DNA from: a virus
Reading direction: 5' to 3' (one strand)
Virus record (IMG/VR): IMGVR_UViG_3300019762_000006
Location: 25,999-89,998 of that record
Length of the DNA: 64,000 nucleotides
Under the pieces are notes generated by a model that had not been told where the DNA came from, did no database searches, and saw only the letters and a list, made by a program, of their open reading frames with translations. The translations under genes and the position numbers were made by a program. This document shows, piece after piece, positions 675 to 32,114 of the stretch (position 1 is its first letter; every line of letters starts with the position of its first letter).

Positions 675-725
675 ATGTTAGTAACAGTAACAAATGTAGA
701 ACTAGCTGGAATAGCGAGTGACTAA
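675..725 (+). CDS. Micro-ORF (16 aa) coupled to next virion gene
   Basis: A 16-codon frame starts 8 bases after an AAAAGGAAA ribosome site, and its TAA stop overlaps the ATG of the following gene (TAATG). It could be a genuine micropeptide, a translational-coupling leader, or the remnant of a longer gene. I do not recognise it. Confidence 0.35.
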   Translation: MLVTVTNVELAGIASD

Positions 726-2503
726 TGAAAGAACCACAAATTGATATACGACAGACAGCAGTACAGCAACATATAAACAGAGTAGGATTTAAGAACAAGT
801 TTCTAAGACTTTGGGGAGATAACGGTATAGCCCTTAGTGGTAGACATATATACTATCCAGATATGGAATTCAGAAATGTAAAGCTATTTAAGTTTCTGAA
901 CATGTATGAGGATCTAAAGGAGTCTACAAATAATATGAAAGGTGTAGAATCTGCTTGGATATACTTAAACCCAGAAAAAATGAAATCCTCAGATTTGACT
1001 GAAGAGCTGTTAGTACAGACCTTAGAGTTTAACATACCTAACGGTGTGTATAGCATAACTGTAGCTCCTAAGGTAAGGCTAGTCAAAAGGAAATTCGGTG
1101 GGATATTTGGTACTACAACAGTAACTGAAGAAGGCCCTGATACTTTAGGTATACTAAGTGATACATATGTAAATGGGGATGGGACTATAGACCATAAGGT
1201 ACTAGGCGAATACATCAAAGATAACTACACCACATTAGTGTCAGACTATATAATAGACCCTAATAGTACTCCTGAGGAGGATTCTGAAAGTATAGAAGTA
1301 GAAACAGCTAATTTGGTGGCTATGTACGCTTTAGGAGGTTCAAATGGGTTCAGTGTAGAAGTTACAGGAATGACTTACACTTTTTCGGAATCTGCCAAAA
1401 TAGTGAAACAAGATAATGGTACTTCAGTTAGCTACCCGTATCGTACTAAGGCTTTGAATATAGAGATGAAAATAGAACAGATTGGCGCTATAGGAGAAGA
1501 TGACCCTATAGTACAAAAAATAGTTGCAAAATATAATGAACTTGAAGCATTGGATGAAGCTAAAAATGCAACGAATTCGTCAGTAGATAGCGCACTTAGT
1601 AAAGTATCAGAAAAAACTGATGAGATATGGGTGAATGGTCTGATGAGGCTTGACATATTTAGTGCCCAAGTCCTGAAGACCAAAGATTTAGTTCCTATAA
1701 TAACTGGCTCAATAGATACAGGCTACCAAAAGAAAAAAGCAAAATGGTATAGCAAATTACTTTCAATTATAGTACTAGTAGTAGCAGTATACTTGACAGC
1801 AATTTCTGGTGGAAGTTTGGCACCATTAGCTAAAGTGGCATTAGTAGCTACCGTTGCTACGTTAGCTGTTACTGTTACCAGTGTAGTTCTAACTGCATGG
1901 GGAGACTATGCAGGAGGAGCATTCGCAGGTAAGCTATCGCAAGGATTAGGTAAAATATCTGCTATAGTAGGATTCCTAAATCTGGCAAATATAGCAGTTA
2001 ACGCACTACGAACAGCTGCTACGGAAGGTGCCAAACAAGCAGCTGCTCAAGAGCTTGGTAAGCAGGCCACTGAAGTTACAGCTGCAGAGTTAGTTACTTA
2101 CCAAGCAAGTAGGTCTCTATTAGACACAATAACCCAAACAGCTGCTGAGCTATTTAAAAATACGGGAGGTAACTTCCTAAGCACAAAGCAAGGATTGACA
2201 ATAACTAACAAAGTGTATGGTATGTACACAAAAAACAAGTTAGAAAAGCTGTCCTCGAAGCTTGAATCAGCAGAGACTAAAGAAGCGAGTTACGCTGAGT
2301 TAGAGGAGCAGATGAGATCAAAAGACATTAGTAAAGAATTTATAAAAGCTGGAGCTGAAGTGCTAACTGATAGTATAGATGACCCCTATGACAACATATA
2401 CAGTGGTTGGTCTACCAATATGCATTCAGGCAATATACAGAAGACTAGTTGGAAATGGAATAGGACTGGTGCGAAGGACGGCTTAAGGAATGATAAGATA
2501 TAA
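725..2503 (+). CDS. Virion structural protein with central hydrophobic segment
   Basis: This 592-residue protein sits in the late operon three genes upstream of the virion RNA polymerase, the position where N4-like phages place medium-sized virion proteins. The N-terminal half is a soluble mixed fold. Residues about 340-395 are strongly hydrophobic and alanine/valine rich, enough for one or two membrane passes or a buried helical hairpin. The last 130 residues are charged and helical. The start overlaps the stop of the preceding micro-ORF. A protein that crosses the host membrane during DNA ejection is one possibility. The assignment as a particle protein rests on position, and I recognise no catalytic motif. 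Confidence 0.6.
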   Translation: MKEPQIDIRQTAVQQHINRVGFKNKFLRLWGDNGIALSGRHIYYPDMEFRNVKLFKFLNMYEDLKESTNNMKGVESAWIYLNPEKMKSSDLTEELLVQTLEFNIPNGVYSITVAPKVRLVKRKFGGIFGTTTVTEEGPDTLGILSDTYVNGDGTIDHKVLGEYIKDNYTTLVSDYIIDPNSTPEEDSESIEVETANLVAMYALGGSNGFSVEVTGMTYTFSESAKIVKQDNGTSVSYPYRTKALNIEMKIEQIGAIGEDDPIVQKIVAKYNELEALDEAKNATNSSVDSALSKVSEKTDEIWVNGLMRLDIFSAQVLKTKDLVPIITGSIDTGYQKKKAKWYSKLLSIIVLVVAVYLTAISGGSLAPLAKVALVATVATLAVTVTSVVLTAWGDYAGGAFAGKLSQGLGKISAIVGFLNLANIAVNALRTAATEGAKQAAAQELGKQATEVTAAELVTYQASRSLLDTITQTAAELFKNTGGNFLSTKQGLTITNKVYGMYTKNKLEKLSSKLESAETKEASYAELEEQMRSKDISKEFIKAGAEVLTDSIDDPYDNIYSGWSTNMHSGNIQKTSWKWNRTGAKDGLRNDKI

Positions 2504-2540
2504 TAGAGACAAAATAGAATAAAAGTAATAGGAGATAACT

Positions 2541-3062
2541 ATGACAGAAAAAGAAATGCAAGCAATACTTGCTAATCAAACAGGACGTGACGAGTATACG
2601 GATTTGGGATTTAGTAAAAACGGGCTGATAGCACCTAATAGTAGTGCATTAGCCGGACAGTTAGTCACTACGCAGCCTACAACAACTTTGGGTAATCCTG
2701 GACTATCTGGAACTGTGGGGACAGAAACAACATCCCCATTGCTACAAGAAGGTGGATATGTGCCAAATCTTAAGTTCGATGCGAATAGTAATGTGACAGG
2801 TGTGGATACTACTACAGGAATTGGGTTAAATGCCCCTGTAGGTACAGGTAACTCGGATGCATCGTGGTTCTCAGAAAATAAGGATATGCTAAGTGCTGGG
2901 TTGGGATTAGGTCAACTAGGTTTAGGTGTACTAAATTACAATGCAAATAAAAAACAGTTAGAAAGTGACTTGGCTACAGCACAACAAGCTAGACAACTAG
3001 CACTGGCAAGAGCTGCTAATAAAACTGGGATTCAAAACAAGTTCCAATCGGTATGGAGTTAA
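2541..3062 (+). CDS. Small internal virion protein (putative)
   Basis: This 173-residue protein is preceded by a TAGGAG ribosome site and ends one base before the next gene. The first 115 residues are low in charge and rich in Gly, Thr and Asn. The C-terminus has an amphipathic leucine-glycine stretch followed by an alanine/glutamine-rich helix. This resembles internal core or ejection proteins of podoviruses. Position in the late operon, two genes before vRNAP, agrees with that. No enzymatic signature is seen. Confidence 0.5.
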   Translation: MTEKEMQAILANQTGRDEYTDLGFSKNGLIAPNSSALAGQLVTTQPTTTLGNPGLSGTVGTETTSPLLQEGGYVPNLKFDANSNVTGVDTTTGIGLNAPVGTGNSDASWFSENKDMLSAGLGLGQLGLGVLNYNANKKQLESDLATAQQARQLALARAANKTGIQNKFQSVWS

Positions 3063-3063
3063 T

Positions 3064-4392
3064 ATGGCAATAGATTTAACAGGTGGTATAAGTAGCGCGT
3101 TATCTGATACCTTTAATAGGTTCAATCAAGACGACTTAAACAAGAAAGCAGAACTGGCTAAACAAGAACAGCTTAAGTATGTGAGAGATAGAAATGCTGT
3201 GCTAGATGCACAAAATAAACAGCTATTCGATATGAAAATAGCTGAAGCGAATAGGCTAAAACAACAAGACAATAGACTTGGTGAAATAATGGGTAAGCTT
3301 AGTAACACAACAGCAGAACAAGTAGTGAGTACTCCTGGAAATGCTAATGAAGTTGCTGCTCAACAAGGGCTGAACCAAAGAGTAGACCAAAGATTACAAA
3401 ACTATAAGCAGAATCAAGACAATAAATATACAGATAACTTGTTTGCTGCATTAGATGCACAAAATGAGGCTCTAATGAATGTTAAAGAAGGCATTATGTT
3501 GTCTAAACCCAAAGACCCTAGAAGTACTGGGTACACTGTAAGTCCTGTGAAAGGTACAAGTAATGAAGTGTACACTACTACTGAAGGGGAAAGACTAACA
3601 TTTGACCCTGAAAGTGCGGTTGGTAAACTGCTGTACGGAAAGAATACTGGTGGAGGATATGAACAAGTAACTCCTGTTAATGCGGTAGTTGGCGGTGAAG
3701 AGGCCAAAAAGGCTACAGCAGAGATGGAAAGAATAAAAGCTGAAGGGCCTAAATTCAACGATAAGCGTATTGAAGCAATAAACAGTAGCAGAGTAGACGT
3801 AGATAAATTAGTTAAACCCTCAAAAGAGATAAAGAATGTGAAACTTACTAAAGATGAGTGGGCCCAGAATGCATACAATATAATTGCTAGTGACCCAACA
3901 TTGTCTGGAAGTGCCAAAGCTAAAGCAATAAACTCCCTAAACACTCAAGCAGAGTTGCTATTTGGTAAAAGTAAAGAAGCTACCTATGACCAAATATTCA
4001 AGGCAAAGAAAGCTATAAAAGAAGAAGCTGATGCTAGACAGACAAGTACAGCAATTGCTAGAGACTTAAATATAAGAATACCTAATGGTATGTCAGGCAA
4101 ATCTGCGTTAGACTATGTGAAAAATACTGAGGCGTATAAGACGCTAGGAGATAAGAAAAAGTATAATAAATATGGTGCAGGGCCAGAAACTCTAAAGGCT
4201 TACGATAGTGGACTTGGTACTATAGACTCAGATGACCAAAAGAAAATTGAAAAAGCTGCGGCCAAAGCTAAGCTTACGGATAAAGATTTGGCTAGTATAA
4301 TAACAACTATGAATACTAAGGACTTAACTCCTAGATTCAGTGGTAATGTTACTGAAGATGTACTAGACTACATAAATAGAACTTCTAAATAA
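3064..4392 (+). CDS. Internal virion / ejection protein (putative)
   Basis: This 442-residue, very hydrophilic and mostly helical protein is rich in Lys, Gln, Asn and Ala. It has likely coiled-coil character in residues about 20-80 and 90-140. It starts one base after the previous stop and immediately precedes vRNAP, a place occupied in N4-like genomes by virion proteins. Such gene pairs often encode core proteins that leave the capsid with the DNA. Nothing catalytic is recognised. The function is inferred from position and composition. Confidence 0.5.
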   Translation: MAIDLTGGISSALSDTFNRFNQDDLNKKAELAKQEQLKYVRDRNAVLDAQNKQLFDMKIAEANRLKQQDNRLGEIMGKLSNTTAEQVVSTPGNANEVAAQQGLNQRVDQRLQNYKQNQDNKYTDNLFAALDAQNEALMNVKEGIMLSKPKDPRSTGYTVSPVKGTSNEVYTTTEGERLTFDPESAVGKLLYGKNTGGGYEQVTPVNAVVGGEEAKKATAEMERIKAEGPKFNDKRIEAINSSRVDVDKLVKPSKEIKNVKLTKDEWAQNAYNIIASDPTLSGSAKAKAINSLNTQAELLFGKSKEATYDQIFKAKKAIKEEADARQTSTAIARDLNIRIPNGMSGKSALDYVKNTEAYKTLGDKKKYNKYGAGPETLKAYDSGLGTIDSDDQKKIEKAAAKAKLTDKDLASIITTMNTKDLTPRFSGNVTEDVLDYINRTSK

Positions 4393-4448: not shown

Positions 4449-7400
4449 ATGCCAACTCAAGAAGAACTTCTAAACGCTGTATTCGTAAATACAAATAACA
4501 CACCAAAACAAACAAATAATTCACAATATGTATACGATGCAGATACACTATACCAAAATGGTAATGGGTACAGAGTAGAAGGGATAGATGCTCCTGAGAT
4601 GCCATCCTATGCACTAAAGCAAGAAAGAATTGCAAAGGCACTAAAAAGCAAGCTTGGAAGATTCGTTAGTAAAGCAACAGCTGGAGAAGCTGCTAAACTA
4701 GAAGCTGAACTAAGTACACTGAACTTCAATGGGATTGACTCAGGATTCCAAGAAACAAGCTTTAATGACAATCAACTACAACCTACTTACCAAGAAACTC
4801 CACAATCCGATTCAAAAGGGGTATATGGGAGAGATATACTCAATAACCCAGCATACCAAAATGAACTTGTGGCTAAAGGATATGCAATACCTGCGTTTGA
4901 TAACCAGACACCAGAAGGTCAAGCACTAATGCTAAATGCAAAGAAACAAAAGCTTGGGCTTTGGGCAGATCCGGAATATGCTGCTGAAATGGAAGCAGTG
5001 GCCAATAAAAGAGGTACTAGTACAGTAGAAGAGATACCTGAATACAATATACTAAGGGGCGTGGGTTCTGCTGGATTAGATGTAGCAGCTAAGGTTGGTG
5101 GACTGATTGGTGAAACTATTGAGTCTGCTGGTGAAGGAATTGGAGTAGATGCTGTTAAAAACAGCGGAACAGCATTGCAAAATGCCTTTACAGAGTTCCA
5201 AAGAAAACAGTATGGTAAAGAGATAACTGGGTATGTAAGTAGAAATGTAGATGAGCTTAGCGCTGAAATAGACGATACAATAAAAAAAGATGGATACATG
5301 TCTGCAATAGCTAAGGCTGTGACAGACCCAAGATCACTGGAAGTACTTGCAAATAGTGTGCCTGAAATGATAGCACTTGCGGCTAGTGTTGGAGGTATGG
5401 CTGTAGCGAATGTGAACAATAACATAAATATGGCCGAAGCTGAATTAGGTAGAAAATTAGACACAAAAGAAAAGGTGTTGAGTGCTAGTGCTAGTATAGT
5501 TGGTACGTACATGGATAGATTTGGTGACAAATTGGCACTTAGTGGGATGAATCCTACTAAAGAAGCACTAAAGACTGTGATAAATAAAATGAGCCAAGAA
5601 GGTAAAAATACACTTAGTAAGAAGTATGGTAAAGAGATACTTACAATAAGTTCTGCTCCACTTAGACTAGCTAGTGCAGGTGCTATTGAAGGATTGACTG
5701 AAAAAGGTCAAACAATGCTAGAAACTGCTGCACAAACTCCTAGAGTATTCGAGGAAGGATTTACAAAAGAAGAACTAGATGAATCCAATGTTGCTGGTGT
5801 ACTTGGGGTTACTATGGGTACACAAATGGCAAGTCCAAAAGTTGTTTATGATGTAGCTACGAAAACAGTGCCAAGTCTTCCAAAGGCTAGTAAAGATATA
5901 CTAGAACGAGCTACAGAGACAGAAGCACAACGTAAAGTAAGAGAAACTACTGAAGTAAGTGCTCCAATTAGAGAGGCTGCAATAGACAGTACACTAAAAG
6001 GTGACACAGACAGTGTGGTAAAATCAGCTGAGGAGATGCATGGTAAATTAGCTAAAGAGTTAGATGGAAGTGCTCCAAAGAAGTATACATACAATGTGGT
6101 ACTATCAAATGCACTGAATAGAGCACACGAGTCGAATGATGACACAGCAATAGCTAATGTGTACAAAACAATTGGTGATTTAAATAACCGAAAAGATGTA
6201 GACTTCAAAGCATCTGAAATGGTAGATAGTAGAATGTACGAAGCTACTAAGGAGTTTCTGGACTTAGTCAACAAAAATGACTTAACAGCAACAGATAAAA
6301 TGGAAGCAATAAACTTAGGTAAAAAGATAGGTGAGAATGCTACTGAACAAAGTGCTAGTAAAAGTAACATACTAACTGAAGTAAGATTGATGAAAGAGCA
6401 ATTGGAAAAAGAGAAAAAAAGCTTAAAGTCAGTTAAAGGCTCAGAAGACTTTGGTGGACCAATAGATAAGCTAATGAAAATAGTAGATGATTACTTAGAA
6501 AATAGAGATGCTGAAAAAGTGAATGCTCAAGTAATGGACTTAGGGTACATAGAATTGGATCCCACAAGTGGTGTACTAAAAGCAGATCCAAATAGACCTG
6601 GGTTACGTGTATATGCTAAAGAGCTAGAAAAACAGATGCTAAACCCTAACACTAATAAGAACTTACTAGATAAAAAAGTAGTTGCTAGTGGACAAGTAAC
6701 AATACCAAAGCTAGCTAAATTTGCTAAGAGTAGACTAGATAAACTAAATCCATACAAAGATAATTCTGCGTACCAAACAAGCTCATTACTAAACACACTC
6801 AAGGCCGAAAATGAACAAATGAGTAACACAATAGTAGAACTAGTGAAGATTGCTAGTAAATTAGAAATAGACAAAGAAATAAAAGATAAGTATGTAGCAA
6901 AGCTAAAAGAAGCTGGTAAAAGTGCTGTAGAAGCAAATAAAGAGATGCTAAGAAGAGAAAAGTTAATAAATGACACAACTAAACCAAGTGGAAATGGACA
7001 ACTTGCGTTCCAAGTAGACCCAGATGGTACTGAATCAATAAGACTGGTAAGTGGTGAAAGTAACACAAAAGTTGCTGATGTAGTAGATGGTAAAGTTGTG
7101 CCAATTGCACAAGAACAGAATGCGGAACAAGTTGCAGATAAACCTCTAAGTAATGCTTCAATAGTTGAAAAAGCTCCAACTAAAGAATCAATGAAAGAAG
7201 AGGGTGTAAGAAATGCTAAAAATGTGACAACTGCACCAAAGCCAAAGCAAACAGTAGTGCAATGGTTAACAGCACAACTGGATGAAATGGTTGATAACCA
7301 AAAAAAGACAATGGTAGAAGCTGCTAAAGAAATAAATGACTACTTAAGTGCACAAGGATTAGATAAAGATACAATTACTAAGTACAATGTAATACTTAGA

Positions 7401-10400
7401 AAGCTGGTAAAAGATAGAGTGGATGAAAAGAAAACTCCTCTGAATAAAGTAAGAGCTAGGGTATCAGAATTGGATACAGAACTAAGTAAGCTAGTTGAAA
7501 ACGTTGAGGATATGAATATGCTAGTACACGTAAAAGAGTACTACAAAAGAAAACTTGGTGAAGTACAAGCTGAAAGAACTACATTGAATAAGGTGCTTGA
7601 TAGAATGGAGGCAGAACTAACTAAGAGAACTGGTACAAATAGAGTAAGCAAGTTAAGAGAGCTTGCTGACAAACTAATAAAAGGTATGGTAAGAGCACTA
7701 CAAGAAGTTAAAAAAAGAATAAATCTAGTAAACGCTGAGCACGATAGATTAACATCAGAGCTAAATGAAATATCAACAATGATAAAAACAATTGAAGAAG
7801 AATACATAGGTACAGTAGAACCCGAGATAGAGACTAGACAAACATCAATAGGAGAAATAACAAGATATGAAGATAGTGCTTATGGACCTATGGTAGAGCT
7901 TGGTAACAAAAGAGTAAATGCTAGAAGAACCCTAAGTCCAACAGGTAAGGTAGTACAAAGTCCGTCAAGTGCGTTGAATGATGCAATGGAAGTACTAAAA
8001 CAGGATAAAATAGAAGAGTTGAATGCAGAATTAACAGAACTTGCTAGTGAAGGTATAACAAGCTTAGGAGCTAAAATACTAAAAAGAAACCTAGAAAACT
8101 TCCCAATAGTGTCTCCAGTACATAAAATACTTACTAGTGGGTATGATAGTGTATTCGGAAAGCTAGAAGGAAATATATTCAAAGATGCTGATAAATTACT
8201 AGAAGTGTTACCAAAAGGATTCAAAGACTTCTTTGCGTCAGACAAAGAGAATGAACAGGCACTAATAGATAACTTCCAAACAATGAGCAAGTATATAGAA
8301 AATACTAAAATTGGAGATATAAAAATTGGTTCAAATAGGATTAGTAAACATATAGATCAATTTGGATTGGTAATGAACCAAAAGCTTGGGTTTGTGCCAA
8401 TTGAAAGACAACTAATAGTTGGTGACAGAGTAAAGATTGGTGAAACAACATACTTAATAGGTAAAATAGAAGGAGATAAAGCTACTGTAACAATCCCAGG
8501 TAAGAAAGGTACAAGCACAAAGAAACTAAGTGAGTTCCAATCAGTTAGAGAGAAACAGCCTGAATCGTTTCCAGTAGATATAATAGAACTAATAGGAACT
8601 GTGAAAGATGATAAACTGGAGATAGATGAACAAACTGAAACAATACTAAAGTTCTACACAGCTAAGATGGTAACCGATACACAAGCTATGATTGGTAAAA
8701 TACTAAGCTTCGATGAATCAGAAATGGGACTGTACTTAGGTATCACAGATCCAGATGAACAGATAAAAGTCAAACAAGATGCACAAAATGGTTTGGTAAA
8801 TTCTGCAAGTGTACGGTCAGATATAGGGAATGAAGTATACCAAGCACTAGGAATAAAGTTAACAAAGAATACTCCTGAGTTTACTGAAGAATCACTAACA
8901 TCTGCGTTAGGTGTACTAGTACAAGCAATAGCAGTAGATAATGGTACAATGTCAATGGATAAGCTAACTGCAGAGAAGAATACAAACTTGATACAAGTAA
9001 ACAGAGCAGCAGTAGATAAAGCACTAGAAGTAGATGGTAGAGGTACTGAACAATTAGCAAAAGCGATGAGTAAACTACAGTACTTGAATGAAGCTAGAAA
9101 TAGACCCCTACCAAAAACTGCAAAGCCTAAGCGTAAGACTAGTAGAAATGTAATGAATACAAAAATACCTATGGATGCATTGAATAACGATAAACTGAAT
9201 GATATGGAACAAATAGCATATACAATTAGTCCTAAACTACAAATGTGGTTGGCTATGGATGAAACAGAAGCATTGAAAGCCAGAGGATACGTAGAAGTTG
9301 AGTCTGCTGGTCTGCATATAAGTGAACAAGATGCACAACAAGCCAGAAATGATAAATTGGTAAGAGAATGGGAAATACTTAAGATATTTGCTCAAGCAAC
9401 AAAGAATAAAAAGTTTTACTTAGATTGGGGTCAAACAGTAAGTGGTAGATTCACAATACTAAATGACATACAGTACCAAGAAAGTAAACTGCATAGAGAG
9501 TTTGTGGTAGCAGACAATAGCACAGAGACAATAGATGTAAATGATGCTGATTCAAGACAAATGTTGGAAGCTAGCATACTACAAGGGTTAGACATGGACC
9601 CAGATAAGTTAAGTACAGAAACAGCTAGTGCTAACTTCAATAAACTGTTCAAAGTAACAGATAAAGGAATTGAGGTAACTGAAAAAGGGGCAGTAAAAAC
9701 AGCATATGAAGCATTGAGAGCTGGTAAGGTAGATGCGGATGCAATGGCAGAAGTATTTGCTGATTCAGAGGGACATCATGGTATAAGCTCAATAGAGTTG
9801 CTAGTAGATTGGAACAAAGCAATAGTAGATGGTACTACACTAGAAACACACGCTAACTTAGAAATTGATGCGATAACAAGTGGTATGATACTAACATTAC
9901 TACAAATAGGTACAGATAAAGCAATAGAACTTGCTGAAAAAGGTGGAATATATACGGCTGATAGAGCAAAAGAACTAGAAGCATATGTAAAACATTGGTT
10001 GGGTGATGTAACATTTACTCCAGGAGCATTGATTGAAGCTGGTAAGAAACACGCATCAGCAATTGAATCTGGTACAGATAAAAAGTTGCTAAAAGGACAA
10101 GAAACTAACTTACAAAGTGATACAGTATTCAAAGACCTGTACTCAACAATTGGGGTTGGGATGATTGAAGAAGTTCAAACATATAAAGAGAGATTACTAG
10201 CAAAATCGGATAAGACTGAGTCTGAAATGAAACAACTTGCAATGTTAAATGAGATCGGAGAGTTGAACTTAAAGAATATCCGATCAATTGCAAAGAGTCC
10301 TGTAATGGTATACATATACGGAGCAACAGTAAACTCAATTAAGAAAAAGTTAACATACTCACTTGGAATAGATACACTAGTTAAGACAATAAAGAAAGCT

Positions 10401-12002
10401 AGTAAACTACTAAAAGAGGGAAAAGATGCTGGTAAAGAGTTGGGGTTTGTAGATATGTATATACCAAACAAAGTGTACAAAGATAGATTCGGTGGTAAGA
10501 TTGCAGATAATATGCCAGAGTGGAAAAAGTTGCTACACTTAGATATAGATAGTGGCACAATAAAAACAGTAGGAGATGTGATCAATGCAACATTTGGAAC
10601 AGCAATTGAAACAACATTCGATAGTAGACTAGGATTCGTAGATAGAAATAGGGATGCAGTAAAAACCCTAGAAATAATAGCGTTCGAAGCATACCAAGTA
10701 AGACTGGCCGAAGAAGTAGAAAACTTGCTAAATAGTAGATACGGGGAAGCAAAGCATGAAGGTGAGTCCTACAAAATAAGTAAAGATGACTTGGTAAACA
10801 TAAACAACAAACTGACTGCACAAGGGTATGGGCATGACATCGTATGGGATGAAGCAGGTAGAGATAGAGTAAACCAAACACTTAACAAGACTGGTACTAA
10901 AGGGGGATTACATTCAAGTAGTGTGACAGTTGGTGACACAAAAGTTGGAGGGCAGATAAAACAGAATAAAGCAATAGTAAATACAGGTGCTGCATCAACA
11001 ATACCAATCCATGCAATAGATGGTAGGATGATACTAGAAACACTAAATAGAGAATTAAAAGGTCCGCTAAAGGGTAAATACCATGGTGGGAATGTGTATG
11101 ATGCTGTAGTGCTAAGTGCTAACAAAGCAATGCTAACAGACACAGCAGACTACTACAATAAGAATATGATTGAAATAGGGTTCAGTAGATCAATAGTAGC
11201 AGACCAAATGGCCCTAGTAGAGAATATGCTAAGTACAATGAGTGACAAACAAAAAGTAAAGATGTTCAATAGATTAGGTCTAAGACCTGAAGGAGATACT
11301 AGAGAAGACTTTACAAAAGAAGTAAACAGACTTCACTTAGGAACTGGTAAAATGCTGGAGAGACTAGAATTAGCTGAAACAACGAATAAGGAAAGATTAG
11401 TAAATAGTGGTAAAGAGTACATGTCTGGACATCTGTACCAAATGGGTTCAGGAGTAGTAAATATACCTGCTAGTGAGGTAAGAGCTAAAGAGTTCCCAGC
11501 AATAACAACACTTAAAACAATGCTAGAAAATAAGATGATTGCTGATAGAAAACAAACAGCTGAGGAATTTGCTAGTAAGACAACAGGACAGCCAGACTAT
11601 GTGCTAAACTTGTATGATATAACACAGAATACACAAGTTAAGTCAAAAGCAAATATAGCACAAATGGTGAATAAAGGCGATAAGCTAAAAGTTAGTGATA
11701 ACTTAACAGAATCTCTAGGTAGCAAAGATACAGTTGAAATAGTAGGTTCAGTTGGTAGTGAGTTAAACAATAGTCAAAAGTGGTGGTTAAATAATATGAA
11801 AAATAATATACTTGCATCAGATGCTGGTATAGTAGCTAATAGCAATACATCAGAAAAGACAATGAGTGAATCAGGTAGAGAGCTAATTGAGGGTGTGTGG
11901 GTTAAACAAAAAGAAGCTAAAAACAAGCTAGAAAAAGATATAATAACTCCAAGTGAAGCATTCAAAAAGAATGTAAATAACAAGATAGAATGTAAGGAAT
12001 AG
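4449..12002 (+). CDS. Virion RNA polymerase (N4 type), with N-terminal SNase-like domain
   Basis: A 2517-residue protein. The polymerase core shows the T7/N4 single-subunit motifs: TxxGR (TVSGR, residues 1663-1667), motif A (EIDAITSG, probable catalytic D1807), motif B (R1945, K1949, Y1957, G1958 in AKSPVM..YIYG) and motif C (IHAIDG, D2191). Motif B spacing (4 and 8) and the gap between the two Asp (384) are close to those I recall for N4 vRNAP. It should be packaged in the capsid, injected with the DNA, and transcribe early genes. Residues about 26-175 look like a staphylococcal nuclease fold: D32, R42, D47, E50 and R128 fit the catalytic set. The middle (about 200-1240) is long and helical. 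The roughly 1400-residue C-terminal domain expected from N4 is absent here and is encoded by the next gene. Ile codons are overwhelmingly ATA. Confidence 0.9.
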   Translation: MPTQEELLNAVFVNTNNTPKQTNNSQYVYDADTLYQNGNGYRVEGIDAPEMPSYALKQERIAKALKSKLGRFVSKATAGEAAKLEAELSTLNFNGIDSGFQETSFNDNQLQPTYQETPQSDSKGVYGRDILNNPAYQNELVAKGYAIPAFDNQTPEGQALMLNAKKQKLGLWADPEYAAEMEAVANKRGTSTVEEIPEYNILRGVGSAGLDVAAKVGGLIGETIESAGEGIGVDAVKNSGTALQNAFTEFQRKQYGKEITGYVSRNVDELSAEIDDTIKKDGYMSAIAKAVTDPRSLEVLANSVPEMIALAASVGGMAVANVNNNINMAEAELGRKLDTKEKVLSASASIVGTYMDRFGDKLALSGMNPTKEALKTVINKMSQEGKNTLSKKYGKEILTISSAPLRLASAGAIEGLTEKGQTMLETAAQTPRVFEEGFTKEELDESNVAGVLGVTMGTQMASPKVVYDVATKTVPSLPKASKDILERATETEAQRKVRETTEVSAPIREAAIDSTLKGDTDSVVKSAEEMHGKLAKELDGSAPKKYTYNVVLSNALNRAHESNDDTAIANVYKTIGDLNNRKDVDFKASEMVDSRMYEATKEFLDLVNKNDLTATDKMEAINLGKKIGENATEQSASKSNILTEVRLMKEQLEKEKKSLKSVKGSEDFGGPIDKLMKIVDDYLENRDAEKVNAQVMDLGYIELDPTSGVLKADPNRPGLRVYAKELEKQMLNPNTNKNLLDKKVVASGQVTIPKLAKFAKSRLDKLNPYKDNSAYQTSSLLNTLKAENEQMSNTIVELVKIASKLEIDKEIKDKYVAKLKEAGKSAVEANKEMLRREKLINDTTKPSGNGQLAFQVDPDGTESIRLVSGESNTKVADVVDGKVVPIAQEQNAEQVADKPLSNASIVEKAPTKESMKEEGVRNAKNVTTAPKPKQTVVQWLTAQLDEMVDNQKKTMVEAAKEINDYLSAQGLDKDTITKYNVILRKLVKDRVDEKKTPLNKVRARVSELDTELSKLVENVEDMNMLVHVKEYYKRKLGEVQAERTTLNKVLDRMEAELTKRTGTNRVSKLRELADKLIKGMVRALQEVKKRINLVNAEHDRLTSELNEISTMIKTIEEEYIGTVEPEIETRQTSIGEITRYEDSAYGPMVELGNKRVNARRTLSPTGKVVQSPSSALNDAMEVLKQDKIEELNAELTELASEGITSLGAKILKRNLENFPIVSPVHKILTSGYDSVFGKLEGNIFKDADKLLEVLPKGFKDFFASDKENEQALIDNFQTMSKYIENTKIGDIKIGSNRISKHIDQFGLVMNQKLGFVPIERQLIVGDRVKIGETTYLIGKIEGDKATVTIPGKKGTSTKKLSEFQSVREKQPESFPVDIIELIGTVKDDKLEIDEQTETILKFYTAKMVTDTQAMIGKILSFDESEMGLYLGITDPDEQIKVKQDAQNGLVNSASVRSDIGNEVYQALGIKLTKNTPEFTEESLTSALGVLVQAIAVDNGTMSMDKLTAEKNTNLIQVNRAAVDKALEVDGRGTEQLAKAMSKLQYLNEARNRPLPKTAKPKRKTSRNVMNTKIPMDALNNDKLNDMEQIAYTISPKLQMWLAMDETEALKARGYVEVESAGLHISEQDAQQARNDKLVREWEILKIFAQATKNKKFYLDWGQTVSGRFTILNDIQYQESKLHREFVVADNSTETIDVNDADSRQMLEASILQGLDMDPDKLSTETASANFNKLFKVTDKGIEVTEKGAVKTAYEALRAGKVDADAMAEVFADSEGHHGISSIELLVDWNKAIVDGTTLETHANLEIDAITSGMILTLLQIGTDKAIELAEKGGIYTADRAKELEAYVKHWLGDVTFTPGALIEAGKKHASAIESGTDKKLLKGQETNLQSDTVFKDLYSTIGVGMIEEVQTYKERLLAKSDKTESEMKQLAMLNEIGELNLKNIRSIAKSPVMVYIYGATVNSIKKKLTYSLGIDTLVKTIKKASKLLKEGKDAGKELGFVDMYIPNKVYKDRFGGKIADNMPEWKKLLHLDIDSGTIKTVGDVINATFGTAIETTFDSRLGFVDRNRDAVKTLEIIAFEAYQVRLAEEVENLLNSRYGEAKHEGESYKISKDDLVNINNKLTAQGYGHDIVWDEAGRDRVNQTLNKTGTKGGLHSSSVTVGDTKVGGQIKQNKAIVNTGAASTIPIHAIDGRMILETLNRELKGPLKGKYHGGNVYDAVVLSANKAMLTDTADYYNKNMIEIGFSRSIVADQMALVENMLSTMSDKQKVKMFNRLGLRPEGDTREDFTKEVNRLHLGTGKMLERLELAETTNKERLVNSGKEYMSGHLYQMGSGVVNIPASEVRAKEFPAITTLKTMLENKMIADRKQTAEEFASKTTGQPDYVLNLYDITQNTQVKSKANIAQMVNKGDKLKVSDNLTESLGSKDTVEIVGSVGSELNNSQKWWLNNMKNNILASDAGIVANSNTSEKTMSESGRELIEGVWVKQKEAKNKLEKDIITPSEAFKKNVNNKIECKE

Positions 12003-12004
12003 AT

Positions 12005-15000
12005 ATGGGTTGTTCAGCACAAGATCAAATAGCAGGCTACAAAACAATAAATAAAAAGTTAAGAGAATTAAATCCAAATGTAGATCCAATAGGACTGCAG
12101 TTTGGTATAAACAAGTACTGGCTAGGCTTAGAAAATAATATAATGACTGATGCTGAAAAAGATGTATACAACACATTAGTAAAGCAAACAGAAGGGATAG
12201 CATTAATAAACTTAGGCGGAACTAAACAATTGCAAGAACAGTTGGTGTTCGTTAAAGACATAGGTAAAGAGTATGTAATACATTTAGAAAGTGGTAAAAA
12301 CTACACATTCGAAAAAGGTAAAGCACAAAGTAATCCAACAAGAGCTGGTAGAACAGTAATGATGCCTGCAATGGAATTGACTAAAACATATCAAAATTCT
12401 GTAAAAGGTAGTGACCAAAACACACAAATAGGAGAAACTGAAGCAGATAAATTCATAGAACAAGAAGTAATAGATCTAGGCACAACACTAACAGATAAGT
12501 TCATGGAAATGGCTGAGATGAATCAGGAAAGTTCAGGGTTAAAAGAACTAAGAAACAAAATGAAGATAATTGGTGAGTATGAAGTAAAGATAAATGAGTA
12601 CAATGCAAGAAATGAAGAAGCTCCAGCAAAGTTAATGGAAGACTACAACAAAACCTACGATGAGGCTGAAGCAATACAAGCAACACTGACAGAGTTTGAA
12701 GTACTGACATCAACTGTGTTAAATACATACCAAGTAACAATGACTAATTTAGGCACTGGTGAACTAAAGATGCAAATGTTTGAGAATGCAAATAGCCAAA
12801 CTGCGGCATCTATAGATTTGCGAACAAATGAAATGAAAGCTAGATGGAATAAAATGTCAAGAATAACAAACTTGAGTGAAGCGTTCCTACATGAGATAAA
12901 CCACAAGATGTCAAGTCACGTGTTCGATGCAAATGTACAACTAACAAGACTAATGAAAGACTTGCGAGATAGTGCAATAAATAGTGGTGTAACCTATGAA
13001 CTGTTTCTAGACAAGATTGCTGATCCAACAGAACAAGAAATAGAAATAGCAAAGATGAAGTTTAAGTATGTGTTTGACAAAACAGCAGATATAGAAGAGT
13101 TCTACGCATATGCAACAACAAATGAGCAAGTATACAATGCGATAAAAGATGTGAAGATATCAATACCGCTAATAAAAGACCTTGAAATAGACCCTAGTAA
13201 ACCAAGCTCAATAAAAAAGGTACTAAATGCACTAATAAAAACAGTAAATACAATATGGACAACGCTAAGTGGAAGAGGAAAACGTGGTGGTCAACTAGTA
13301 GCAGAAATGGTAACAACAATAGCTAAACTAGATGCAGAAATGATGCAACAAAAAATGGTAGATGAGAATGAACAGCCTGGAGTAAGTAGCTACGCAAGAG
13401 CTAAAATGAATAGCATAGATGAGCTAATAGAACCTGTGGTAAAGAAAGTGGGAGATTGGTCAGAGAAGTTAAGTGAAGCTGGACCAAAAGATGTAAGTAA
13501 GCAAATAGCCAAAATACCAGTACTAAATGAACTAATGAATACTGGAATAACCCAATACTTGTGGAGAGCGGTAACGCAAGATACAACAACAGAGGATGTG
13601 GCAGATATGTACGCAGTGTTTAGACATAGTAAGCAAGTGGTAGAGAAACATACAGCAGACATTAGAAATGGGGTTAAGTCAGTAGCAACTGAAATGTTCA
13701 AAGACACAGACAAAACAACAAAAGACGCAATAACAAAAGTAGTACTAAGTGGAGATATGGCACAGTTCACAGCAAGTGAGATACAAGAGTACCTAAATGA
13801 GCCTGCTAAAATACAAGAAGAAATAGAAAAGCTAACAAAAATAGTACATTTGGGAGCAAGTAAAGAACTAGTAAAAAGTAGGGATAAGCAAATAGATGGA
13901 CTAGCTGAGTACTTAGTAAGTGGTAAAACAGTAGCACATGATCAACAAATAAATGCAAATAATATAGCAGCAAATATGCAAATAGCGCATAGAGTGCCAA
14001 AAAGAAAGATGCCTGAAAGACCAAGTAAAGAATTAATCGATACGATAGATAAAATAGTGTCCCTAAAAGTGCTCCAAAAGTCCGATGAAGTACACACTAA
14101 AGCAATAAAAGAGTTGGTGTCTAATAAAGACGGAGTAGAATTGCTAGATAAAACAATAAATATGTATAGAGGATACATAGATAACATGAGAGCAGATGCA
14201 ACAATAGATGCACATGATCCAATACCAAAAGGATACACAAGACCAGCAGATGGACTGCTAAGATACGAGTTAATCCCTGAAGATGAAGTAAAAGCTCAGG
14301 AAAGTGTGCTAATGAGATTGGTAAATGATAAACCGTACACAATAGTAGAAGGTAAAAAATACTACTTAATGACGGGTAGAACTAAGTCAGTAGGGTTCAG
14401 TGAAGGTGCTATTGGGTTAATATCACATACAACTGAAGGTATACCCCTAAGTTCACTAATAAGAAAAAACAATGAAATGAAAGGAAATAAAGGACTAATA
14501 GATGGGGAACTAAGAGCTAAAACAAAACAGATAGTAGAAGCAATTAGAAATTCAAAAAATGGTAGAATAAATAAGTTTGCAATGATAGAAGGACAAACAC
14601 TAGTACCAGTGTACAACCACAGAAATGAGATAGTAGACTACAGAATACAGTTGAATAACCTAGAAAAAGAGATGTACTTGCCAGATAGAGAAACAGAGAT
14701 AGAAGATATACTAAGTAACACATTCAGTAGAAGTATAAAAACTTCACTAACAGCCACAGAGAACAAAAGAGTGGTAGATACAATAATAGAAAACAGTGGT
14801 AGAGGAGTACTAGAAAATCCAGATGACTACGTGCTAGTAGAAGAATATACTGAAGAAGATAAAATGAATGGTGTTAAGCGTGAAAAAAGGCATGATAGAT
14901 GGGAATACTTACCAGACCACACAAAAGACTACATATATCAAAGAACTAGCAATAAAGGTATACTAGTACACAAAGACTTCGTAGAATTAATGACTGGTGA

Positions 15001-16009
15001 AAAAGATGTGACGATTGGGAACTTTGCAAAGTTTGGGTTTGATATGAAACAACACCCTGTAGCAAAAGCTAGATTAATGGCATTGGAAGCCTATATAACT
15101 GAAATACTAAGCTATGTGAAGCAAGCAATGGTTGTGCTAAATGGGGATATACTAGTTGGTAACCAAGTGAGTAATGCAATGGTAGCAGCAAGTCACGGAA
15201 TAAACCCAGTAAAATACACTAAAAAGTTCAAACAGAGATGGCAACAATTAAATGACTACAATGAAAAAGTACAAATGTTATCAGAGTTAGAAGTTAAGCA
15301 AATGGCTGGTGAAAATGTTGGGTTAGAGATAAGACAACTGAAGAAACAGTTAGAAGGTAATATATGGGATGAATTGGTAAAAGATGGTCAATACACTGCG
15401 TTAGTGGAAGACGTAAATATAGAAGCTAAACTAGATGGACAAATTGCAACAATGGTACAACAACAAATAGATAAAAGTAACTTCAAAGGAATAATAGAAG
15501 GAGTTAGAAATGGTCTGTATATAGATAAAACAACAGCACTGTATCAAACAATGGCAAAATCAGTACACTATGGTGATGCGATAACAAGACAAATAATAAA
15601 AGAAGAATTGGAAGAAAAAGCAATAAAGAGAGAAGGAGAGTTAACAGAAGATGTAAAAAAAGATATACTAAACTACCTAGATCAGTTGCTAGTAAACTAC
15701 GGATACACAATGAACCGGTGGTGGAAGTACTCAGAGAGAGTGGGAGGGTTGTTCTTTATGCGATACTACATGGGACAAGCAAAAGCTATAATGAGTATGG
15801 CAAAAAAGAGTCCAACAAGGACAGCACTACTGCAAGGTGTGCAAAAAGTGACTGGTGTGGATATAGCAGACCCAATAGACACATATACCAATAGTGGTAT
15901 AGATGGAGTAACTTATAGGCATATGTTTACAGAAGCTCCTTACTTATTAGCAGAACCTAACATACTTGATCTTATACCCGACATGTCCGCGGCATTTGTA
16001 ATGAGGTAG
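12005..16009 (+). CDS. vRNAP C-terminal domain as separate protein; HExxH peptidase-like motif
   Basis: A 1334-residue protein that starts two bases after the vRNAP stop, in another frame, with an AAGGAA ribosome site at 11994-11999. Its size matches the C-terminal domain that is part of the single N4 polypeptide. It therefore probably rides in the particle with the polymerase and assists packaging or ejection. Residues 296-300 read HEINH inside a helix-like context, followed by DIEEFYAYATTNE near residue 362. This is the HExxH plus downstream EEF(x)AY...TN arrangement of gluzincin-like metallopeptidases found in large phage and plasmid polyproteins, with E364 or E365 as the possible third zinc ligand. 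The last codons use C-rich triplets unlike the rest of the gene (see the cassette downstream). Peptidase activity is inference. Confidence 0.75.
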   Translation: MGCSAQDQIAGYKTINKKLRELNPNVDPIGLQFGINKYWLGLENNIMTDAEKDVYNTLVKQTEGIALINLGGTKQLQEQLVFVKDIGKEYVIHLESGKNYTFEKGKAQSNPTRAGRTVMMPAMELTKTYQNSVKGSDQNTQIGETEADKFIEQEVIDLGTTLTDKFMEMAEMNQESSGLKELRNKMKIIGEYEVKINEYNARNEEAPAKLMEDYNKTYDEAEAIQATLTEFEVLTSTVLNTYQVTMTNLGTGELKMQMFENANSQTAASIDLRTNEMKARWNKMSRITNLSEAFLHEINHKMSSHVFDANVQLTRLMKDLRDSAINSGVTYELFLDKIADPTEQEIEIAKMKFKYVFDKTADIEEFYAYATTNEQVYNAIKDVKISIPLIKDLEIDPSKPSSIKKVLNALIKTVNTIWTTLSGRGKRGGQLVAEMVTTIAKLDAEMMQQKMVDENEQPGVSSYARAKMNSIDELIEPVVKKVGDWSEKLSEAGPKDVSKQIAKIPVLNELMNTGITQYLWRAVTQDTTTEDVADMYAVFRHSKQVVEKHTADIRNGVKSVATEMFKDTDKTTKDAITKVVLSGDMAQFTASEIQEYLNEPAKIQEEIEKLTKIVHLGASKELVKSRDKQIDGLAEYLVSGKTVAHDQQINANNIAANMQIAHRVPKRKMPERPSKELIDTIDKIVSLKVLQKSDEVHTKAIKELVSNKDGVELLDKTINMYRGYIDNMRADATIDAHDPIPKGYTRPADGLLRYELIPEDEVKAQESVLMRLVNDKPYTIVEGKKYYLMTGRTKSVGFSEGAIGLISHTTEGIPLSSLIRKNNEMKGNKGLIDGELRAKTKQIVEAIRNSKNGRINKFAMIEGQTLVPVYNHRNEIVDYRIQLNNLEKEMYLPDRETEIEDILSNTFSRSIKTSLTATENKRVVDTIIENSGRGVLENPDDYVLVEEYTEEDKMNGVKREKRHDRWEYLPDHTKDYIYQRTSNKGILVHKDFVELMTGEKDVTIGNFAKFGFDMKQHPVAKARLMALEAYITEILSYVKQAMVVLNGDILVGNQVSNAMVAASHGINPVKYTKKFKQRWQQLNDYNEKVQMLSELEVKQMAGENVGLEIRQLKKQLEGNIWDELVKDGQYTALVEDVNIEAKLDGQIATMVQQQIDKSNFKGIIEGVRNGLYIDKTTALYQTMAKSVHYGDAITRQIIKEELEEKAIKREGELTEDVKKDILNYLDQLLVNYGYTMNRWWKYSERVGGLFFMRYYMGQAKAIMSMAKKSPTRTALLQGVQKVTGVDIADPIDTYTNSGIDGVTYRHMFTEAPYLLAEPNILDLIPDMSAAFVMR

Positions 16010-16069: not shown

Positions 16070-16249
16070 ATGTACAAACAAAATAAACCAGTAAGAGTAG
16101 GTATGACAATTAAATCAGACTTACTAAAAGAAATGAAAGACTACTTAAAACAAGTAAATGAAAACAAGTCACTAAAATACGTAAGTCAGTCAGAGTTTGT
16201 AAATGAGGCAATTGCTCAGCTGTTAAATAAGGAGCTGGGAGATGCGTAG
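16070..16249 (+). CDS. Ribbon-helix-helix regulator of homing cassette 1
   Basis: A 59-residue basic protein too short for routine gene lists. The N-terminal strand (PVRVGMTIKSDL) followed by two helices (LLKEMKDYLKQVN, then SQSEFVNEAIAQLL) is the Arc/CopG/MetJ ribbon-helix-helix pattern, so it probably binds DNA as a dimer. It overlaps the endonuclease start by 8 bp, giving translational coupling. A 59-residue homologue in the same arrangement lies at 31935-32114. The likely role is repression of the cassette promoter just upstream, or guidance of the endonuclease. This role is inferred from fold and position. Confidence 0.75.
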   Translation: MYKQNKPVRVGMTIKSDLLKEMKDYLKQVNENKSLKYVSQSEFVNEAIAQLLNKELGDA

Positions 16250-17126
16250 GTTGACAACAGAAGAATGGATAGAGAAAGCTATAAAAGTTCATGGTAATAA
16301 GTATGACTATAGTAAAGTGAACTACATAACAAATAACACTAAAGTAATAGTTATTTGCCCAATACATGGAGAAATAGAACAAGTGCCACGAAGTCATCTG
16401 GCTACTGTTGGGTGCCAGAAGTGTGCTAATAAAACAAAGCTGGCTAAAGAAGAGTTTATAGAGAGGGCAATAAAAGTACACGGAGATGTATATGATTATA
16501 CTAAGACTGTTTATAAAAATACATATTCGAAAGTGCTCATAACCTGCCCAATACATGGTGACTGGGCACAACTCCCAATGGGTCATCTACAAAGTAGAGG
16601 CTGTCCTAAGTGTGCTATAGAAAGCAGAGTTGCGAAAAACTCAAAAACTACAGAGCAGTTTATAGAGGAAGCTAAGAAAGTGCATAATAGTAAGTATAAC
16701 TATACTAAAGTAGAGTACGTAAATCATAAAGAAAAAGTAATCATAATATGCCCAGAGCATGGAGAGTTTATGCAAAGTCCAAACAGTCATTTAATAGGTA
16801 AAGGATGTCCAAGCTGTGCTGTTACCGGGTTCGATAAAACTAAACCAGGACTGCTATACTACTTAAAAGTAACACTAGAAGATGGTAAAGAGTTGTATAA
16901 AATCGGGATCACCAATAGGTCTGTGAATAGAAGGTTTAATCCAACAGAGTTAAAAAAGATAAAAGTGATAAAAGTAGAAGAATTTAAGTCAGGTAAAGAT
17001 GCTTGGGATAAAGAAAGAGGGATACTAAGTAAGTATAAAGAGTACAAGTACATAGGTCCAGATGTGCTGGACTCAGGCAATACTGAATTGTTCACAGAGA
17101 ATGTAATGGCACTAAAATTGAATTGA
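16242..17126 (+). CDS. Free-standing homing endonuclease: zinc-ribbon repeats plus GIY-YIG (T5orf172/MUG113-like)
   Basis: A 294-residue protein. Three tandem modules (about residues 1-60, 65-122 and 130-190) each read YDYSK..Y......CPIHGE..Q...HL...GCPKC, a DUF723-like zinc ribbon of about 60 residues thought to bind DNA. The C-terminal 100 residues carry YYLKV...LYKIGITNRS..RRF and a downstream KERG, which matches the GIY-YIG nuclease core of the T5orf172/MUG113 group. It overlaps the RHH gene by 8 bp. Homologues occur at 32107-32988 and inside intron 2. It lies exactly at the 3' end of the vRNAP unit, next to a displaced copy of the vRNAP tail, so it has most likely homed into that gene. 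Confidence 0.8.
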   Translation: MRRLTTEEWIEKAIKVHGNKYDYSKVNYITNNTKVIVICPIHGEIEQVPRSHLATVGCQKCANKTKLAKEEFIERAIKVHGDVYDYTKTVYKNTYSKVLITCPIHGDWAQLPMGHLQSRGCPKCAIESRVAKNSKTTEQFIEEAKKVHNSKYNYTKVEYVNHKEKVIIICPEHGEFMQSPNSHLIGKGCPSCAVTGFDKTKPGLLYYLKVTLEDGKELYKIGITNRSVNRRFNPTELKKIKVIKVEEFKSGKDAWDKERGILSKYKEYKYIGPDVLDSGNTELFTENVMALKLN

Positions 17127-31934: not shown

Positions 31935-32114
31935 ATGATAAAAAAGCAAAAACCTATTAGAGTTCATGCAACAATGGATCCAAAATTGATCCAGCAGATG
32001 AAAGATTACTTACAACAAGTAAATGATGACAAAACTTTAAAGTACGTTAGTCAATCTGAGTTTATTAGTGAAGCAGTTAACCAATTACTTAATATGGAAT
32101 TAAACAATGAGTAA
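31935..32114 (+). CDS. Ribbon-helix-helix regulator of homing cassette 2
   Basis: A 59-residue protein homologous to the one at 16070-16249. Shared cores include KYVSQSEF and the LLN(K/M)EL end, plus the RV....I/MDPKL strand. Again it overlaps the endonuclease gene by 8 bp. Ribbon-helix-helix fold inferred from the strand-helix-helix pattern. Likely autorepressor of the cassette. Confidence 0.75.
   Translation: MIKKQKPIRVHATMDPKLIQQMKDYLQQVNDDKTLKYVSQSEFISEAVNQLLNMELNNE

What the first reader, a model, noticed from the sequence alone, without database searches (positions are those of the whole stretch)
12880..13115. Zinc-metallopeptidase signature in the vRNAP C-terminal protein
HEINH (296-300) plus DIEEFYAYATTNE about 65 residues later match the HExxH...EEF(x)A layout of peptidases found in large phage/plasmid polyproteins. 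A protease injected with the polymerase could act in ejection or on host targets.
Basis: partly seen in the sequence, partly recalled or inferred. Interest (0 to 1): 0.7.

Follow-up and report, generated by a model that had tools for sequence, protein, structure and literature searches.

The report
Split phage polymerase with end cysteines
The flagged zinc-protease site is real and belongs to a domain that nearly all virion RNA polymerases of N4-like phages carry; its protein also turns out to be one segment of a polymerase that this and about 25 related phages encode in two or three pieces, each with a lone cysteine exactly at the end that meets the next piece, as if the pieces were stapled into one thread for injection.

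Summary
In detail: HEINH is residues 296-300 and the third ligand is E365 (not E364). The metal-site residues are conserved in almost all relatives of this domain, and AlphaFold2 gives a zincin-type topology. A zincin in N4-like vRNAPs is already published (Iyer 2017). New here: these vRNAPs have two tandem zincin positions. N4 keeps the first (Z1). The window keeps the second (Z2), which in N4 is a decayed remnant at the start of its C2 domain. Of 127 non-redundant vRNAP systems, 126 keep at least one HExxH.

Following the protein further gave a larger finding. Intact vRNAPs are cysteine-free, as is known. In the window and its relatives vRNAP is encoded as two or three polypeptides. At 37 of 37 junctions Cys lies within 7 residues of the upstream C-terminus and within 10 of the downstream N-terminus. 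76 of 78 cysteines in 100,317 residues sit there; none of 45 free chain ends has one. The tree needs at least five changes between intact and split. I propose that disulfides join the pieces tail-to-head into one ejectable thread, released by reduction in the cytoplasm. The bond, the release and the zincin's activity are untested.

The parts
4449..12002 (+). vRNAP polypeptide 1 (2,517 aa): N-terminal domain plus T7-like RNAP domain; its only cysteine is residue 2515, third from the C-terminus (..NKIECKE*)
   Evidence: phrog_2206 hit; RNAP profile hit, about residues 1423-2481; Cys count
8715..11891 (+). T7-like single-subunit RNAP domain (motif A ..EIDAITSG, motif B RSIAKSPVMVYIYG)
   Evidence: alignment A3 and HMM hit
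11991..11993 (+). TGT codon of Cys2515, the tail cysteine of polypeptide 1
   Evidence: sequence
11994..11998 (+). AAGGA, Shine-Dalgarno-like site 6 nt before the ATG of polypeptide 2 (stop TAG at 12000-12002)
   Evidence: sequence; same arrangement in L011
12005..16009 (+). vRNAP polypeptide 2 (1,334 aa): C-terminal domain carrying the zincin; its only cysteine is residue 3 (MGCSAQ..)
12011..12013 (+). TGT codon of Cys3, the head cysteine of polypeptide 2
   Evidence: sequence
12635..13327 (+). zincin-like domain Z2 (profile match, residues about 211-441)
   Evidence: HMM, alignment A4, AlphaFold2 block pLDDT mostly 82-94 in the core, best structural match N4 vRNAP 9pnr residues 2373-2592, Z 8.6
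12890..12904 (+). HEINH, residues 296-300: two metal-ligand His and the general-base Glu
13097..13099 (+). E365, candidate third metal ligand (EEFYAYATTN)
725..4392 (+). three genes upstream (592, 173 and 442 aa), all without cysteine; the 173- and 442-aa genes are in the place of N4 gp52/gp51 (ejection proteins)
   Evidence: Cys counts; N4 gp50-52 also have none; assignment to gp51/gp52 by position only, no PHROG match

Best explanation
The 1,334-aa protein is the separately encoded C-terminal domain of an N4-like virion RNA polymerase (shown). Residues about 211-441 form a zincin-type metallopeptidase domain, Z2, with H296, H300 and E365 as metal ligands and E297 as general base (conservation and predicted fold shown; metal binding and activity inferred, about 0.85). 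Z2 is the second of two tandem zincin positions in this enzyme family; N4 kept the first and lost the second (supported by profile and structure comparison). The two polypeptides each carry one cysteine, at the two ends that face each other. I infer (about 0.75) that these form a tail-to-head disulfide once the virion is outside the reducing cytoplasm. Polymerase and C-terminal domain then travel through the tail and the oxidising periplasm as one covalent thread and are separated by reduction in the new host's cytoplasm. In N4 the C-terminal domain inhibits the polymerase, so reduction could also switch the polymerase on (speculative, about 0.3). Because the zincin is kept even where the polymerase/C-terminal boundary is already a gene boundary, its main job is probably not to cut that linker. 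Action after injection, on co-ejected or host proteins, is the most likely role (about 0.5).
For: Zincin: E297, H300 and F366 invariant and H296, E365 at least 90% conserved in 42 divergent rows. Z1 or Z2 intact in 123 of 127 C-terminal ORFs, and three of the four exceptions (L150, L184, L185) carry an HExxH on their middle polypeptide. AF2 topology. Weak matches of relatives to SprT-like, Peptidase_M91, ATLF and 'putative zincin' DUF3267 models. Z2 position: an HMM built without N4-clade members hits the N4 clade about 200 aa after Z1 (domain E-values about 1e-5 to 1e-24); hhalign 99.3% for N4 about 2418-2638 and no signal in the rest of C2; best structural match of the window model is N4 9pnr 2373-2592. 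Staple: 37/37 junctions with Cys, 76/78 Cys at junction ends in 100,317 aa, 0/45 free ends. Intact enzymes: 10 Cys in 347,426 aa versus 1.12% in neighbouring genes. At least 5 changes between intact and split on the RNAP tree. Pairs persist when unrelated genes lie between the pieces (L160, L208, L218). Breaks that look like frameshift or nonsense errors lack the cysteines. Splits at NTD|RNAP and RNAP|CTD boundaries correspond to the disordered linkers of N4, 907-1007 and 2102-2123 (PMC12633501).
Against: No disulfide, zinc or cleavage has been measured. All split examples are metagenomic; no cultured one was found and none in genome contigs. Classical zincins did not appear among the Foldseek hits of the 450-aa model, and Z 8.6 to N4 is modest. 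The modelled N4 remnant is all-helical, without the sheet, so part of the N4-Z2 match is to the region after the active-site helix. 21 of the 25 split rows form one clade, so the junctions are not independent and the binomial figure (about 1e-164) is naive. The split set for one search was assembled after the pattern was seen; the HMM-defined set is the fairer test. One contig (L078) has no zincin and one intact enzyme (L118) ends in SCDC.
Confidence: 0.75

Rival explanations
1. The terminal cysteines are a side effect of translational coupling: overlapping stop, Shine-Dalgarno and start signals force certain codons at gene junctions.
For: Most junctions are tight (gaps of about -13 to +12 nt) and tails such as LKEGC overlap an AAAGAAGG-type ribosome site.
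Against: Ribosome-site overlap explains Lys/Glu/Gly, not Cys; the head Cys at position 2-10 is outside any such site; the Cys pair persists where unrelated genes separate the pieces (L160, L208, L218).
Confidence: 0.04
2. The cysteines serve something other than a tail-to-head bond: homodimers, attachment to another virion protein, metal binding or lipidation.
For: A single Cys can do any of these; vRNAP is present in several copies per virion (PMC12633501); L118 ends in SCDC with no following piece.
Against: Polarity: middle pieces have one Cys at each end, free chain ends none (0/45), and the counts match a linear chain.
Confidence: 0.17
3. The gene splits are sequencing or assembly errors in metagenomes.
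For: Some breaks in the data look like errors: L015, L114, L123, L141, L130, L135.
Against: The genuine junctions have stop, ribosome site and start, are shared by relatives at 59-63% identity (window, L010, L011), and carry cysteines that the error-type breaks lack.
Confidence: 0.02
4. The zincin is a self-processing protease that cuts the giant polyprotein (model of Iyer et al. 2017).
For: Proposed for polyvalent proteins; the P1 DdrB precedent cited there.
Against: N4 vRNAP is packaged unprocessed (same paper). The zincin stays intact in lineages where the RNAP|CTD boundary is already a gene boundary.
Confidence: 0.25
5. HEINH...E365 is a structural remnant without catalysis.
For: Z1 or Z2 is lost or decayed in many lineages, once by a clean 218-aa difference between two 96% identical Vibrio phage enzymes.
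Against: At least one intact HExxH in 126 of 127 systems; HExxH plus acidic third ligand in nearly all Z2-lineage members.
Confidence: 0.1

Closest known systems
Phage N4 vRNAP gp50, C1 zincin-like domain (PDB 9PNR; Bellis 2025, PMC12633501)
   Same: Same giant enzyme, same order NTD-RNAP-CTD; HExxH plus NEFxAW site; no cysteines in the intact form
   Different: N4's intact zincin is at position Z1; the window's is Z2, which in N4 (about 2391-2592, start of C2) has lost all ligands; N4 is one polypeptide
Zincin-like MPTase of polyvalent proteins (Iyer et al. 2017, PMC5512222)
   Same: HExxH helix, glutamate in a second helix, three-stranded sheet; [quoted passage not shown]
   Different: Two homologous positions with reciprocal decay, and location on a polypeptide separate from the RNAP, are not in the passages read
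Vibrio phages phi 1 and VCO139/JA-1 vRNAP
   Same: Intact Z2 with HELVH...HEFVALGLTN
   Different: Single polypeptide; phi 1 also has Z1
T7 ejection protein gp16 and other internal core proteins
   Same: Large protein ejected through a narrow channel and refolded in the host (from general knowledge)
   Different: No head-to-tail cysteine pairs known to me; not tested here
Interchain disulfides and split inteins in general
   Same: Ways of joining separately made polypeptides
   Different: No intein domain was matched; here lone terminal cysteines occur serially in a linear order

Membership tests
N4-like (Schitoviridae) virion RNA polymerase | T7-like RNAP motifs followed by a large C-terminal domain, downstream of the ejection genes | tested here: met
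   phrog_2206 on both ORFs; RNAP motifs in A3; gene order
N4-like (Schitoviridae) virion RNA polymerase | single polypeptide of about 3,500 aa | tested here: not met
   2,517 + 1,334 aa in the window; split also in L010 and L011. It works like, and is homologous to, the N4 enzyme but is a two-chain form
N4-like (Schitoviridae) virion RNA polymerase | no cysteine residues | tested here: not met
   one Cys per polypeptide, both at the junction; otherwise none
zincin-like metallopeptidase (polyvalent MPTase group) | HExxH plus downstream glutamate ligand, conserved in homologues | tested here: met
zincin-like metallopeptidase (polyvalent MPTase group) | three-stranded sheet, active-site helix, second helix with Glu | tested here: met
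   AF2: strands 193-200, 207-211, 216-221; helix 230-249 (HEINH at 236-240); helix 303-312 (E at 305); model numbering = residue minus 60
zincin-like metallopeptidase (polyvalent MPTase group) | match to a curated peptidase family or a solved zincin | tested here: inconclusive
   only sub-threshold SprT-like/M91/ATLF hits in relatives; M48 chain 3c37 at E=0.59; no zincin among the Foldseek rows shown
zincin-like metallopeptidase (polyvalent MPTase group) | zinc binding and peptide cleavage | not testable with these tools
   needs protein
disulfide-linked split chain (proposed) | one Cys on each facing end, none at free ends | tested here: met
   37/37 junctions, 0/45 free ends
disulfide-linked split chain (proposed) | covalent S-S bond in the virion | not testable with these tools
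   needs virions and non-reducing gels or mass spectrometry

The most novel reading that the evidence does not exclude
Giant injected enzymes of this phage group are built as a train of separately encoded segments coupled tail-to-head by lone cysteines. The disulfide couplings form outside the cell, hold the train together through the tail and periplasm, and open in the host cytoplasm, so that the redox step both uncouples the inhibitory C-terminal domain and switches on transcription. This would be a redox-released covalent thread, a way of moving giant enzymes through a narrow channel for which I know no precedent.
Probability: 0.5. Interest if true: 0.95.

Novelty: new variant of a known kind. 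Interest (0 to 1): 0.86.

Why it matters
How a 380-kDa polymerase passes a channel of about 35 angstroms is an open question; its freedom from cysteine was noticed years ago and explained as a need to avoid disulfides (PMC3715699, PMC2784036, PMC3915230). The split enzymes are the exception that makes this testable: cysteine is allowed only where a bond between pieces would be useful. The pattern predicts linkage, order of ejection and a redox trigger, all checkable on virions. The two-position zincin gives the start of the N4 C2 domain, reported as without structural relatives, an evolutionary origin, and points to a natural pair (phi 1 versus VCO139) for finding out what the protease does.

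Tried and rejected
Pfam, PHROGs and PDB sequence searches with the single protein gave no peptidase family. Foldseek of the 450-aa model against PDB and BFVD gave no significant zincin; long helices dominate the hits, so this is no evidence against the fold. The first idea that the window's HEINH is N4's known HExxH was rejected: it aligns to a different position. L114 was first counted as a split with terminal cysteines and then rejected: a reading-frame slip creates ..DCCQV. L015, L123, L141, L130 and L135 breaks were set aside as frameshift or nonsense errors because coding continues in another frame or a close relative is intact. An IQ-TREE run did not finish; FastTree was used. A search of genome contigs found no relative. 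Papers: none found that describes split vRNAP or terminal cysteines, but subscription papers are mostly not in the library.

Full report
WHAT WAS ASKED. Both motifs are there: ORF 12005-16009 (1,334 aa), HEINH at residues 296-300 (nt 12890-12904), E365 at nt 13097-13099. About 0.026 HExxH would be expected by chance in this composition.

WHAT THE PROTEIN IS. Both this ORF and the preceding one (4449-12002, 2,517 aa) match PHROG 2206, virion RNA polymerase: the preceding ORF covers profile 1062-2033 and this one 2269-3378. tblastn finds 332 phage records, most of the listed ones annotated as virion RNA polymerase. The window is bases 25999-89998 of an 89,998-base virus record. So the enzyme that N4 makes as one 3,500-aa chain is here made as two. 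The same split, with the same ribosome site and start, is in L011 (59% identity); L010 (63%) is split a little earlier.

THE ZINCIN. In 42 aligned Z2-type segments E297, H300 and F366 are invariant and H296, E365, A368, T372 and N373 are at least 90% conserved; E364 varies. AlphaFold2 with that alignment gives block pLDDT mostly 82-94 for the core and the order long helix, three strands, helix with HEINH, helix with E365, the layout described for polyvalent-protein zincins (PMC5512222). Relatives give sub-threshold hits to zincin models: SprT-like in 6 of 42 (best 8e-6), Peptidase_M91, ATLF, DUF3267. Metal binding and cleavage are not shown.

TWO POSITIONS. An alignment of C-terminal domains showed two separate HExxH columns. 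Z1 is the N4 site (HELVH...NEFMAWGL, in the C1 domain of the N4 structure). Z2 is the window's site. Z1 and Z2 look homologous: each profile finds the other domain in many proteins, and hhalign of the N4 Z1 segment to Z2 gives 98%. An HMM of Z2 made without N4-clade members finds a Z2 remnant in the N4 clade about 200 aa after Z1, without HExxH (residues such as F,Q,T,T in place of H,E,H,E). hhalign gives 99.3% for the N4 segment of about 2418-2638 and nothing for the rest of C2 (the residue numbers printed in that output are offset because a lookup failed; 2118 is the first residue of the alignment). The best structural match to the window model is N4 9pnr residues 2373-2592, Z 8.6 over 179 residues, far longer than the next unrelated rows but modest in Z. 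The AF2 model of the N4 remnant is all-helical and matches the solved 9pnr 2391-2592 (Z 13.6), so the sheet has gone. Intermediates exist: L004 aligns over profile 12-228 with F,K,Q,N, and L103, L105 and L107 align over nearly the whole domain with degraded sites. Over 127 non-redundant systems: N4 clade 57 Z1 only and one without (L078); other intact 36 Z2 only, 5 Z1 only, 3 both; split 18 Z2 only, 4 both, 3 with EExxH in Z2, and these three have an HExxH on their middle polypeptide. Only L078, a contig fragment, has none. A clean natural case: Vibrio phages phi 1 and VCO139 have vRNAPs 96% identical over 3,030 aa, and the single large difference is a 218-aa stretch that is Z1.

THE CYSTEINES. 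Looking at the junction gave the main result. The 2,517-aa polypeptide has one cysteine, third from its end; the 1,334-aa polypeptide has one, at position 3. Intact vRNAPs have practically none: 98 of 103 non-redundant ORFs have zero, 10 Cys in 347,426 residues, against 1.12% in minus-strand ORFs of the same loci. The absence in intact enzymes is known and was explained by passage through tail and periplasm (PMC3715699, PMC2784036, PMC3915230). More split enzymes were fetched and their chains written out. In 26 loci representing 25 chains (L151 and L181 are two ends of one contig), all 37 junctions have a Cys within 7 residues of the upstream C-terminus and within 10 of the downstream N-terminus (for the one junction split between two loci the entry for L181 tests the downstream side only; the upstream tail, on L151, does end in Cys); 76 of 78 cysteines lie there; none of 45 free chain ends has one within 10 residues. 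Three-piece chains have a middle piece with Cys at each end, for example L154: 2,022 aa (Cys -3), 2,059 aa (Cys 3 and -1), 2,051 aa (Cys 3). One start codon (L151 middle piece) was taken as GTG.

CONTROLS. The chain set was assembled after the pattern was seen, so I also took every locus in which RNAP and C-terminal profiles hit different ORFs, blind to Cys. The exceptions without a Cys pair are L015, L114, L123/L222, L141 and the C-terminal break of L208. In L015, L114 and L141 coding continues in another frame; L123 has an in-frame stop where its near relative L124 is intact; the L208 break was judged from the overlap of the two ORFs only. The naive binomial figure ignores relatedness. On a FastTree of the RNAP domain (84 rows) the split label needs at least five changes on well-supported branches: one clade of 21 including the window, and L160, L208, L218 and L221 each among intact enzymes; several long branches make exact places uncertain. 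L160, L208 and L218 are split between the N-terminal domain and RNAP, with unrelated genes in between, and still have the pair; [quoted passage not shown] NTD|RNAP and RNAP|CTD boundaries are where N4 has disordered linkers, 907-1007 and 2102-2123 (PMC12633501).

HOW IT MOST LIKELY WORKS. Shown: split genes, lone facing cysteines, conservation of the zincin site. Inferred: after lysis the virion interior is no longer reducing and facing cysteines oxidise; segments leave the capsid as one thread; in the new cytoplasm the bond is reduced. In N4 the C-terminal domain slows transcription by the RNAP domain, so release could activate it; this last step is speculation. The zincin persists where RNAP and CTD are already separate genes, which argues against linker cleavage as its main task; N4 vRNAP is packaged uncut. 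I favour action after injection on co-ejected or host proteins.

NOVELTY. A zincin in N4-like vRNAP and the lack of cysteine are published. The second zincin position with its remnant in N4 C2, the recurrent splitting of the enzyme and the terminal cysteine pairs were not found in the literature searched. I file the whole as a new variant of a known kind; the coupling principle would be new in kind if the bond is shown.

Noticed in passing
L119 versus L127 (Vibrio phages phi 1 and VCO139): vRNAPs 96% identical over 3,030 aa except for one 218-aa stretch that is the Z1 zincin; a natural deletion or insertion.
   Followed up: partly
window 725-4392; L013 4512-17512 (N4): The genes upstream of vRNAP, including the ejection genes, are free of cysteine in both phages (window 592, 173 and 442 aa; N4 150 and 644 aa) while other window genes average 1.3%.
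   Followed up: partly
L078: A vRNAP with the Z1 zincin cleanly absent and Z2 degenerate: the only system seen without any zincin.
   Followed up: no
L118 5579-15838: An intact 3,419-aa vRNAP that ends in SCDC, the only intact one with terminal cysteines; its near relative L133 has none.
   Followed up: no
L203: An intact vRNAP with five internal cysteines, the largest exception to the cysteine-free rule.
   Followed up: no
window 16242-17126 (+), 32107-32988 (+), 58429-59295 (-): Three related Cys-rich proteins of about 290 aa with repeated DUF723/treble-clef motifs, two with a T5orf172 (GIY-YIG-like) end: probable homing-type mobile genes.
   Followed up: partly
window 4449-5060: The N-terminus of polypeptide 1 reads like a staphylococcal-nuclease domain (DADTLYQNGNGYRVEGIDAPE..LGLWADPEY); Pfam SNase E=0.0035, below its cut-off; relatives tested show no match.
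   Followed up: partly
L128 14126-15475: A UvrD_C_2 helicase-type domain match (E=4.8e-6, just under its cut-off) shortly before the Z2 zincin in a vRNAP.
   Followed up: no
L011, last about 200 aa of the ORF ending at 8998: An insertion (MTYAGIGSRQTSKETL...) absent from the window's polypeptide 1, just before the tail cysteine.
   Followed up: no
contigs behind L011, L094, L131, L143, L185, L177, L151/L181: Many split-vRNAP phages have contigs of 93-123 kb, larger than the usual 66-78 kb of the intact ones listed.
   Followed up: no
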